Assembly (NCBI RefSeq): GCF_000297775.1
Contig: NZ_JH815514.1
Location: 33,798 to 97,797 of the forward strand
From: Sutterella wadsworthensis 2_1_59BFAA
GTDB taxonomy: Bacteria > Pseudomonadota > Gammaproteobacteria > Burkholderiales > Burkholderiaceae_F
Length of the DNA stretch: 64,000 bases
Direction of reading: 5' to 3'
Part shown: in pieces, positions 31,594-34,618 of the stretch
Layout: each line of letters opens with the position of its first letter
Position numbering within the stretch: the stretch's first letter is position 1
The notes under the pieces: generated by a model
Told to the model about the DNA's origin: nothing
Database searches by the model: none
The model's input: only the letters and a program-made list of their open reading frames with translations
Position numbers and translations under genes: made by a program

Positions 31594-31660
31594 GATCTCC
31601 TAATTAATGAATTCAAGGGTACGTCCCGATTCTATCCCGACTTACCGACCATATATACGT

Positions 31661-32749
31661 ATGTCCAAGAAAACCGTCGTCATCGGCCTTTCGGGCGGCG
31701 TCGACTCCTCTGTCAGCGCCTGGCTCCTCAAGGAGCAAGGCTACAACGTCATCGGCCTCTTCATGAAGAACTGGGAGGACGACGATGACAGCGAATACTG
31801 CTCCTCCCGTCAGGACTTCATCGACGCGAGCGCCGTCGCCGACGTGATCGGCATCGACATCGAGGCCGTCAACTTCGCGAAGGAATACCGCGAGCGCGTC
31901 TTCTCCGACTTTCTACGCGAATACAGCGCAGGCCGCACGCCCAATCCCGACGTTCTCTGCAACGCAGAGATCAAGTTCCGCGCCTTCCTCGACCATGCCA
32001 TGGCCATGGGGGCCGACCTCATCGCCACGGGGCACTACGCCCGCGTCCGTCACACGGACGACGGCGTCCAGCTGCTGCGCGGCGTCGATCCCGGCAAGGA
32101 CCAGAGCTACTTCCTGCACCGCCTCACCCAAGAGCAGATCTCCCGCGTGATCTTCCCCGTGGGCGAAATCTGCAAGACCGAGGTCCGCCGCATCGCCGAC
32201 GACCTCAAGCTTCCCAATGCGAAGAAGAAGGACTCCACGGGCATCTGCTTCATCGGCGAGCGTCCGTTCCGCGAGTTCCTCAACCGCTATCTGCCTACCC
32301 AGCCCGGTCCGATCCGCATTCCCGACGGCACGGTCGTGGGCGAGCACATGGGCCTTTCCTTCTATACGCTCGGCCAGCGCAAGGGCATCGGTGTGGGCGG
32401 CCGCCACGACTCCACGGGCGAGCCGTGGTTCGTCGCGAAGAAGGATCTTGCCACCAATACGCTCTGGATCTGCCAGGGACACGATCACCCGTGGCTTCTC
32501 GCGCACGAGCTCAAGGCCGTCCATCCAAGCTGGATCTCCGGACATGCGCCCGAGCTTGACGCCGAGCTTACGGTGAAGACCCGCTATCGCCAGCCCGACG
32601 ATCCCTGCAGACTCGAGTACGTCTCCGAAAAGAACTTCACGCTTGGCTTCGACAAGCCTCAGTGGGCGGCCACGCCCGGCCAGAGCGCCGTTCTCTATCA
32701 GGGCGACGTCTGCCTCGGCGGCGGCTTCATCGACACCGTGAAGCACTGA
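31661..32749 (+). CDS. mnmA: tRNA-specific 2-thiouridylase MnmA
   Basis: Thiolates U34 in the wobble position of tRNA-Lys, -Glu and -Gln. The 362-residue enzyme has the PP-loop SGGVDSSV near residue 12, catalytic Cys in [13 protein letters not shown] near 100 and in [12 protein letters not shown] near 200, and the C-terminal beta barrel. ATG at 31661 is chosen because conserved sequence ([13 protein letters not shown]) begins there. Both tRNA-Lys genes, including the UUU isoacceptor it should modify, lie about 4.5 kb downstream. Confidence 0.96.
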
Positions 32750-32859
32750 CCCGTCGCCGTCCCGGCCGCCATGAGTCACACGCTCGACAGACATGGCGGC
32801 CGCAGGCAGGGCACGACAGCCGCCCCTCAAACCAATTCCAACCACGACCCAACCATCAC

Positions 32860-33784
32860 ATGCAGACAACCGACCTCAATCCGCTGGCGCAATGGCTGTG
32901 CCACGAAAGGAAGAAACACGGCGGTGTCCGCCAGCACCTCGCCGACAAGCTTGGCATCAACTCCACCACCCTCAGGGAATACGAGATTGGCCGGTACGCC
33001 CCCCATCGCGCACATTCAGAACATCCTCGGTCCCGCGCCTGAAGACGTGATCGAATGGGTGCACGACCGAGCGCTCCACCCCGACACCAACCAGCGCAGG
33101 TCATGCGATATCGACCGTACACCTTTCGAAAAGTGGATTTACGACAACTGCCAAAAGCTCGGCCTCAACCTTGAGAAGTTCGCTGCCAGACATGGCGTGC
33201 ATTCCACCACCCTCGGGGACTACGAGGTTGGAAAGGCAAACATTTCGGACGTCAAGCTCATGGAGCTGGTCCGGATGTACAGCGTACCCGAAGCCTACGA
33301 AGAATGGCGCAAACTGCGCCATCTCTCCGGACAGGATCCTCGAAGCCATTCAGGAGACCTCAATGACGGCCTCTGCCGCTTCGGCATCCTCCTGCGCACA
33401 CTGCGAAAGGAACTGGGAGTGAGTCAAAGAGAATTGTGTCGCGCGCTCGGCAAGGACAGCAAGTACATCTGCAACCTTGAATATGGATACACCCGTGTCA
33501 CCCCGGAGATCATCCTGCGGATCGCCGACTATCTGAACGTGCCCGAGAGAATTCCCGATTTCTTCGCTGCGGTTGACGAAGACGACAACTAGGCGACCGA
33601 GCAGGGCCTCGACGACAGTCATCTGAGCGAACAGGGGCTTCGTGCACGCGAAGAGCGCAGGGCAATGGAACTGTCTCAAAAGGAGCTGGCGGAAATCGAG
33701 GGCGTCACGGCCAAACAGATCTGCAGGCGCGAGACCGAACGCCTGACTTGGAAGGCGAAGATGAAGGAAGAGAAGAACAAATGA
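32860..33784 (+). pseudogene. Tandem four-unit helix-turn-helix protein, frameshifted and with an amber codon
   Basis: Four XRE-like helix-turn-helix units follow each other. Unit 1 (frame from ATG 32860) has GVRQHLADKLGINSTTLREY. Unit 2 has LEKFAARHGVHSTTLGDYEV. Unit 3 has VSQRELCRALGKDSKYICNL. Unit 4 has LSQKELAEIEGVTAKQICRR. Units 1 and 2 are in different frames, joined across a run of six C at 32999-33004; five C would restore one frame. A TAG at 33590-33592 separates unit 3 from unit 4, which runs in frame to TGA at 33782-33784. As read, only fragments are made: unit 1 alone stops at about 33042. It may be a pseudogene, or the C-run may switch. Confidence 0.7.
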
Positions 33785-33816
33785 GGCTTGCCCTCCTTCC
33801 GACGCCCGCCTGAAAC

Positions 33817-33856
33817 AAAAAAAAGCGCAGCCCTTGCGGGCTGCGCTTCTTTTTTG
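33817..33856. terminator. Bidirectional terminator between the HTH gene and terC
   Basis: AAGCGCAGCCC and GGGCTGCGCTT form an 11-base perfect stem with a four-base loop, flanked by eight A and six T. Confidence 0.9.
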
Positions 33857-33880
33857 GGTACTGCATCAGAGGGAGGCAGC

Positions 33881-34618
33881 TCAGCTGCGATCCTTTTCCA
33901 TTTCCTTCGCAAGCAACTTCTTCATCTTCGCCTTGCCGAGGAAGTGACCGATGAGGATCACGAGCGCCGCACAGCCCACGGAGAGCGGGTAGTGCATCAT
34001 GAAGGCCTGTTCGGGCCAGCGCGTCGTGACGAACACGTCGGAGGCGATCATGCCGCCGGCAATCCAGCCGAGAAGGCCTGCGCCGAAGTAGATGATGGCG
34101 GGGAAGCGGTCGATGAGCTTCAGGATGATCTGGGAGCCGAAGACGATGAACGGCACCGAGACGAGCAGCCCGAAGATGATCAGGAGCGTCTGATGGGTCT
34201 CATGAGCCTGCTGGGCGGCGCCCGCAATGGCGATCACGTTGTCGAAGCTCATCACGAAGTCCGCGACGATGATGGTCTTGATGGCGCCGATGAGCTTGCT
34301 GCTGCCCTCGACCTTTTCATGATCGCCGTCCTCGGGAAGCAGGAGCTTGGCGCCGATCCAGACGAGAAGCGCACCGCCCGCCACCTTGAGGAACGGGAGG
34401 TCGAGAAGCATCACTGCGCAGGTGATCAGCACGACGCGCAGGGCGATGGCGCCGGCCGTGCCCCAGAAGATGCCCTTGTTGCGCTGGCTCTCAGGCAGGT
34501 TGCGGCACGCCATGGCGATCACGACGGCATTGTCGCCGCCGAGAAGAATGTCGATCATGATGATCTGGCCGACCGCAGCCCAATGCAGGTTGGCAAGCAG
34601 ATCGAAGAGATATTCCAA
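33881..34618 (-). CDS. TerC-family membrane protein
   Basis: A 245-residue protein with about seven membrane segments. IDILLGGDNAVVIAMACRNL and ADFVMSFDNVIAIAGAA hold the paired Asp-Asn motifs of the TerC/YjbE family, which in several bacteria exports manganese or supports metal loading of exported proteins. The start is TTG at 34618, with GGAGG five bases upstream. No yybP-ykoY manganese riboswitch could be recognised in the leader. Confidence 0.87.
   Translation of the reverse strand: MEYLFDLLANLHWAAVGQIIMIDILLGGDNAVVIAMACRNLPESQRNKGIFWGTAGAIALRVVLITCAVMLLDLPFLKVAGGALLVWIGAKLLLPEDGDHEKVEGSSKLIGAIKTIIVADFVMSFDNVIAIAGAAQQAHETHQTLLIIFGLLVSVPFIVFGSQIILKLIDRFPAIIYFGAGLLGWIAGGMIASDVFVTTRWPEQAFMMHYPLSVGCAALVILIGHFLGKAKMKKLLAKEMEKDRS

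What the first reader, a model, noticed from the sequence alone, without database searches (positions are those of the whole stretch)
32860..33784. Gene with four tandem helix-turn-helix units broken at a C6 tract and an amber codon
Four successive XRE-like units are visible, but units 1 and 2 are out of frame across a run of six C (32999-33004), where five C would restore one frame, and unit 4 follows an in-frame TAG. A regulator built of four different DNA-binding units is unusual. The homopolymer position suggests either phase switching or recent decay. The units differ from each other, so this is not a simple recent tandem duplication.
Basis: partly seen in the sequence, partly recalled or inferred. 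Interest (0 to 1): 0.68.

Follow-up and report, generated by a model that had tools for sequence, protein, structure and literature searches.

The report
Broken orphan gene of HTH repeats
A betaproteobacterium carries, at a spot where its close relatives have nothing, a gene of its own made of four repeated DNA-binding units, and that gene is now split by a one-base frame break and a stop codon, so it is most likely a recently acquired gene that is already decaying.

Summary
Between mnmA and a bidirectional terminator (then terC) lies a ~1.03-kb stretch with four HTH-like units. Codon bias moves from one frame to the next at 32989-33004, which contains the C6 run (32999-33004). The U1/U2 repeat spacing is 241 nt, not a multiple of three. 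Coding bias continues through the in-frame TAG at 33590 to the TGA at 33782. Units 2 and 3 pass the Pfam HTH_3 cut-off; unit 1 is a paralogue of unit 2 and unit 4 a partial paralogue of unit 3, so the array looks like two old duplications. The stretch is an orphan insertion: in 11 of 11 congeneric genomes mnmA and terC are separated by 92-194 nt (561 nt in one) without it, and no relative of the array was found in 67 family genomes, 399 order genomes, plasmids, phages or viral contigs. No other frame break appears among conserved genes of the window. C6 is short and nothing shows length variation. Best reading: a lineage-specific multi-HTH regulator gene that recently became a pseudogene, perhaps still giving a two-unit fragment. 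Phase switching and +1 recoding at CCC-C are not excluded but have no positive support.

The parts
31607..32749 (+). mnmA (tRNA 2-thiouridylase), intact upstream neighbour
   Evidence: orthologues in 12 of 12 genus genomes, 81-93% identity in the 11 others
32763..32802 (+). Strong hairpin just after the mnmA stop (11-bp perfect arms, 18-nt loop), no T run; single copy in the genome
   Evidence: fold z -3.6
32860..33109 (+). HTH-like unit 1 (U1), start to the break in frame 1 and the rest in frame 2
   Evidence: codon bias and homology to U2; Pfam HTH_3 below cut-off
32999..33004 (+). C6 run, where the coding frame changes from 1 to 2; also a CCC-C context in frame 1
33110..33352 (+). HTH unit 2 (U2), frame 2, Pfam HTH_3 27.1 bits
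33353..33589 (+). HTH unit 3 (U3), frame 2, Pfam HTH_3 44.7 bits; the unit with recognisable relatives elsewhere, all generic Cro/CI-type
33590..33592 (+). In-frame amber codon (TAG)
33593..33784 (+). Unit 4 (U4), partial paralogue of U3, ends at TGA 33782-33784; no ATG/GTG/TTG start ahead of the unit
33817..33854 (.). Bidirectional intrinsic terminator shared with terC; similar terminators lie at the same place in most congeners
33881..34618 (-). terC-type membrane protein gene, intact downstream neighbour
   Evidence: orthologue follows mnmA in 11 of 11 congeners

Best explanation
A lineage-specific (orphan) gene for a Cro/CI-type DNA-binding protein made of two old duplicated pairs of HTH units sits between mnmA and its terminator. 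It recently lost its reading frame: a one-base length change at or next to the C run splits U1 from U2, and a nonsense change cuts off U4. It is most likely an early pseudogene. It has no consensus sigma-70 promoter of its own and would be transcribed, if at all, by readthrough from mnmA. What could still be made is a 60-aa N-terminal fragment and perhaps a U2-U3 fragment started at an internal GTG (33047 or 33059). Shown: the units, the frame break, the amber, the insertion relative to congeners, the absence of relatives. Inferred: that the ancestral product was one protein, that the breaks are recent, that it was a regulator, and the lack of function now.
For: Codon bias changes frame at 32989-33004 and runs through the TAG to about 33780; in-frame bias per codon is U1a 0.52, U1b 0.38, U2 0.29, U3 0.48, U4 0.33, against -0.76 and -1.10 for the other U4 frames. 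U4 reaches its bias in 0 of 2000 shuffles, although an open frame alone occurs in 29%. U1 homology to U2 continues past the break in the other frame. The U1/U2 direct repeat is spaced 241 nt. No standard start codon would let U4 be a gene of its own, and ATG 32860 has no Shine-Dalgarno match. 11 of 11 congeners lack the stretch. No relatives found. Orthologous genes across the window show no other frame break on the coding strand.
Against: Only two lesions are visible and host-like codon bias persists, so selection may have been recent or may still act on the U2-U3 part. The U1/U2 comparison gives dN 0.48 and dS about 1.0, i.e. past constraint. No reads or second strain were available, so the C run length is not verified. 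U1 and U4 do not reach any HTH cut-off by themselves. No intact orthologue was found to prove that the gene was once whole.
Confidence: 0.66

Rival explanations
1. The C run length is an assembly or sequencing error. The gene then encodes an intact U1-U2-U3 protein ending at the TAG, with U4 as a remnant 3' end.
For: The frame break coincides, within error, with one of only four C6/G6 runs in the 64-kb window; U1-U3 otherwise read cleanly.
Against: No other frame break was seen in conserved window genes compared with two congeners, including one gene that itself holds a C6 run (17140). It does not explain the loss of U4 at the amber.
Confidence: 0.15
2. Phase-variable regulator: slipped-strand changes of the C run switch between a short fragment and a long multi-HTH protein.
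For: A one-base change at the run would join the frames; C6/G6 runs are strongly depleted in this window (4 against 29.5 expected), so this one stands out. A 7-nt poly(G) tract in H. pylori pldA is cited as phase-variable (PMC2831843).
Against: Six C is short; frameshift rate rises with tract length (PMC2831843). [quoted passage not shown] No length variants found (weak test). The amber and the lack of a ribosome-binding site at ATG 32860 point to decay.
Confidence: 0.09
3. Programmed +1 frameshift at CCC-C in frame 1, making a U1-U2-U3 protein from the sequence as it stands.
For: The break is at a CCC-C context, a known +1-prone site for tRNA-Pro, up to 1% when placed next to the start codon in E. 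coli (PMC4519876).
Against: That is an error-level rate at its most favourable position; no stimulatory element was identified here, and conservation of the site cannot be tested without homologues.
Confidence: 0.05
4. Two separate small genes, each normal: a 60-aa HTH peptide and a U2-U3 protein.
For: Separate short HTH proteins are common; internal GTG starts exist at 33047 and 33059.
Against: Coding bias and homology continue across the break, so U1's second half would be orphaned; U4 has no start; Shine-Dalgarno matches are poor.
Confidence: 0.05

Closest known systems
Cro/CI (XRE)-type HTH domain, Pfam HTH_3 PF01381
   Same: U2 and U3 pass the family cut-off; U3 aligns over nearly the whole domain
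   Different: several units in a row in one reading path; U1 and U4 are below cut-off; no dimerisation or effector domain recognised
Restriction-modification controller proteins C.AhdI and C.BclI, and HipB
   Same: closest solved structures to U3 by sequence (E 5e-4 to 5e-3)
   Different: these are short single-HTH proteins; no restriction or toxin gene lies next to this gene
Wmk family (NF047948), a two-HTH protein of Wolbachia prophage
   Same: weak local HTH similarity at two profile positions
   Different: 13-21 bits against a cut-off of 300; not a member

Membership tests
HTH_3 / Cro-CI (XRE) domain | profile score over the curated cut-off of 23 bits | tested here: met
   U2 27.1 bits and U3 44.7 bits; U1 12.6 and U4 no hit, so met for two of four units
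Multi-unit HTH protein | one continuous open frame over all units | tested here: not met
   frame change at 32989-33004 and TAG at 33590
Multi-unit HTH protein | homologues with the same array | tested here: not met
   none in 67 family genomes, 399 order genomes or the other collections; hits were to single HTH stretches
Phase-variable (contingency) gene | length variation of the tract between cells or strains | not testable with these tools
   no second strain or reads; a pattern allowing variable length found nothing in viral contigs
Phase-variable (contingency) gene | tract long enough for frequent slippage | tested here: inconclusive
   6 nt only; unusual for this window (4 C6/G6 runs against 29.5 expected) but short
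Pseudogene | disabling lesions in an otherwise coding-like sequence | tested here: met
Pseudogene | intact orthologue in relatives | tested here: not met
   no orthologue found at all, so direction and age of decay are inferred
Programmed +1 frameshift gene | conserved slippery site with stimulatory element | not testable with these tools
   CCC-C context present; no homologues to test conservation

The most novel reading that the evidence does not exclude
A working, species-specific regulator with three or four different HTH units in a row, whose length is set by slippage or +1 shifting at the C run and by readthrough of an amber codon, so that one gene gives proteins with different numbers of DNA-binding units.
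Probability: 0.04. Interest if true: 0.7.

Novelty: new member of a known kind. Interest (0 to 1): 0.2.

Why it matters
If the pseudogene reading is right it is a clean but ordinary example of a gene gained in one species and lost again, at a spot between mnmA and terC. The unusual part is the architecture, two pairs of HTH units in one reading path, for which no intact relative was found; that would be worth revisiting if strains with an unbroken copy turn up.

Tried and rejected
The 273-aa mechanical ORF 32771-33592 was rejected as the real gene: the part ahead of the break has negative coding score in that frame and U1 is read in the other frame. A further frame change in the U2-U3 linker (33300-33360, where frame 0 scores slightly higher) was considered; the linker looks similar to the U1-U2 linker in frame 2 by eye, so it was not counted as a lesion. 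A structure prediction of U2-U4 with TAG read as Q gave mean pLDDT 50 and was not used. No mobile-element origin was found: no second copy in the genome, no plasmid DNA match, no Rfam match. Paper searches for tandem HTH regulators of this kind gave nothing usable.

Full report
Observation. The region was read directly and translated. From ATG 32860 frame 1 encodes MQTTDLNPLAQWLCHERKKHGGVRQHLADKLGINSTTLREYEIGRYAP and then runs to a stop after 60 residues. Frame 2 takes over near the C6 run (32999-33004) and stays open to TAG 33590, and beyond it to TGA 33782. A codon-bias model trained on the other genes of the window puts the best single change of frame at 32989-33004, with a near-flat score over that interval. 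The bias continues after the TAG: U4 scores 0.33 bits per codon in frame against -0.76 and -1.10 in the other two frames, and 0 of 2000 dinucleotide shuffles are both open and as biased, although 29% are open.

Units. U1 and U2 are clear paralogues (z 12.7), U3 and U4 too (z 7.8), U2 and U3 weakly (z 3.3); the other pairs are at or near chance level in pairwise alignment. Used alone as queries, U2 finds U1 only in frame 1 and U3 finds U4 only in the frame of the TAG, the second weakly. The U1/U2 DNA repeat is 77% identical over 52 nt at a spacing of 241 nt, i.e. 80 codons and one base. Pfam HTH_3 is passed by U2 and U3 only; U1 stays below the cut-off even when its two halves are read together, and U4 lacks the C-terminal helices. 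So 'four HTH units' is right as an inference from internal homology and strictly demonstrated for two. U1/U2 dN is 0.48 and dS about 1.0: an old duplication with past constraint.

Surroundings. Upstream is mnmA, downstream a bidirectional terminator and terC, then recX and recA (names by family knowledge from the translations). In all 11 congeneric genomes mnmA is followed by terC after 92-194 nt, or 561 nt in one; no homologue of the units lies in those loci, and a DNA search of those genomes with the whole stretch finds only the window's genome. The 561-nt gap encodes nothing resembling this array in any frame. The stretch is therefore a gain in this lineage, unless lost independently in all others. 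No sigma-70-like promoter was found in 32600-34000, ATG 32860 has no Shine-Dalgarno match, and a strong hairpin follows the mnmA stop.

Relatives. Searches with the U2-U3 protein or a U1+U2 profile found only generic single-HTH stretches: 101 relatives and 67 family genomes, 399 genomes of the order, phages, plasmids; the close-relative scans of 84,980 species genomes and of viral contigs found none. HTH_3 is common in the family (67 of 67 genomes), but the listed hits did not include a comparable array; that list was cut, so a rare array elsewhere is not excluded.

Is the frame break real? Proteins from two congeners aligned to the window show no frame break in coding-strand orthologues; the few multi-frame hits were to open frames on the antisense strand. 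This makes a general indel problem in the assembly unlikely, but the single run at issue cannot be checked without reads. C6/G6 runs are depleted in this window (4 against 29.5 expected), which makes the run unusual for the genome and fits a recent one-base gain, but does not distinguish mutation from error or from a slipping tract.

Mechanism. Preferred (0.66): recent pseudogene of an orphan multi-HTH regulator, possibly leaving a U2-U3 fragment. Sequencing error at the run 0.15, phase variation 0.09, programmed +1 shift at CCC-C 0.05 (the site is shift-prone, up to 1% next to the start codon in E. coli, PMC4519876), separate small genes 0.05. [quoted passage not shown]

Verdict. The interest is low: one orphan, broken gene without relatives or evidence of expression.

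Noticed in passing
32763-32802: Hairpin with 11-bp perfect arms right after the mnmA stop, without a T run, single copy in the genome; the region folds better than shuffles (z -3.6).
   Followed up: partly
window 1-64000: C6/G6 runs are strongly depleted: 4 observed against 29.5 in dinucleotide shuffles (C5/G5 and longer: 40 against 116).
   Followed up: partly
L022:941-1500: One congener has a 561-nt mnmA-terC gap with no sequence related to the HTH array, so this spot may take up other insertions.
   Followed up: partly
33300-33360: In the U2-U3 linker frame 0 scores slightly above the coding frame; probably composition, but a compensated pair of small indels is not excluded.
   Followed up: no
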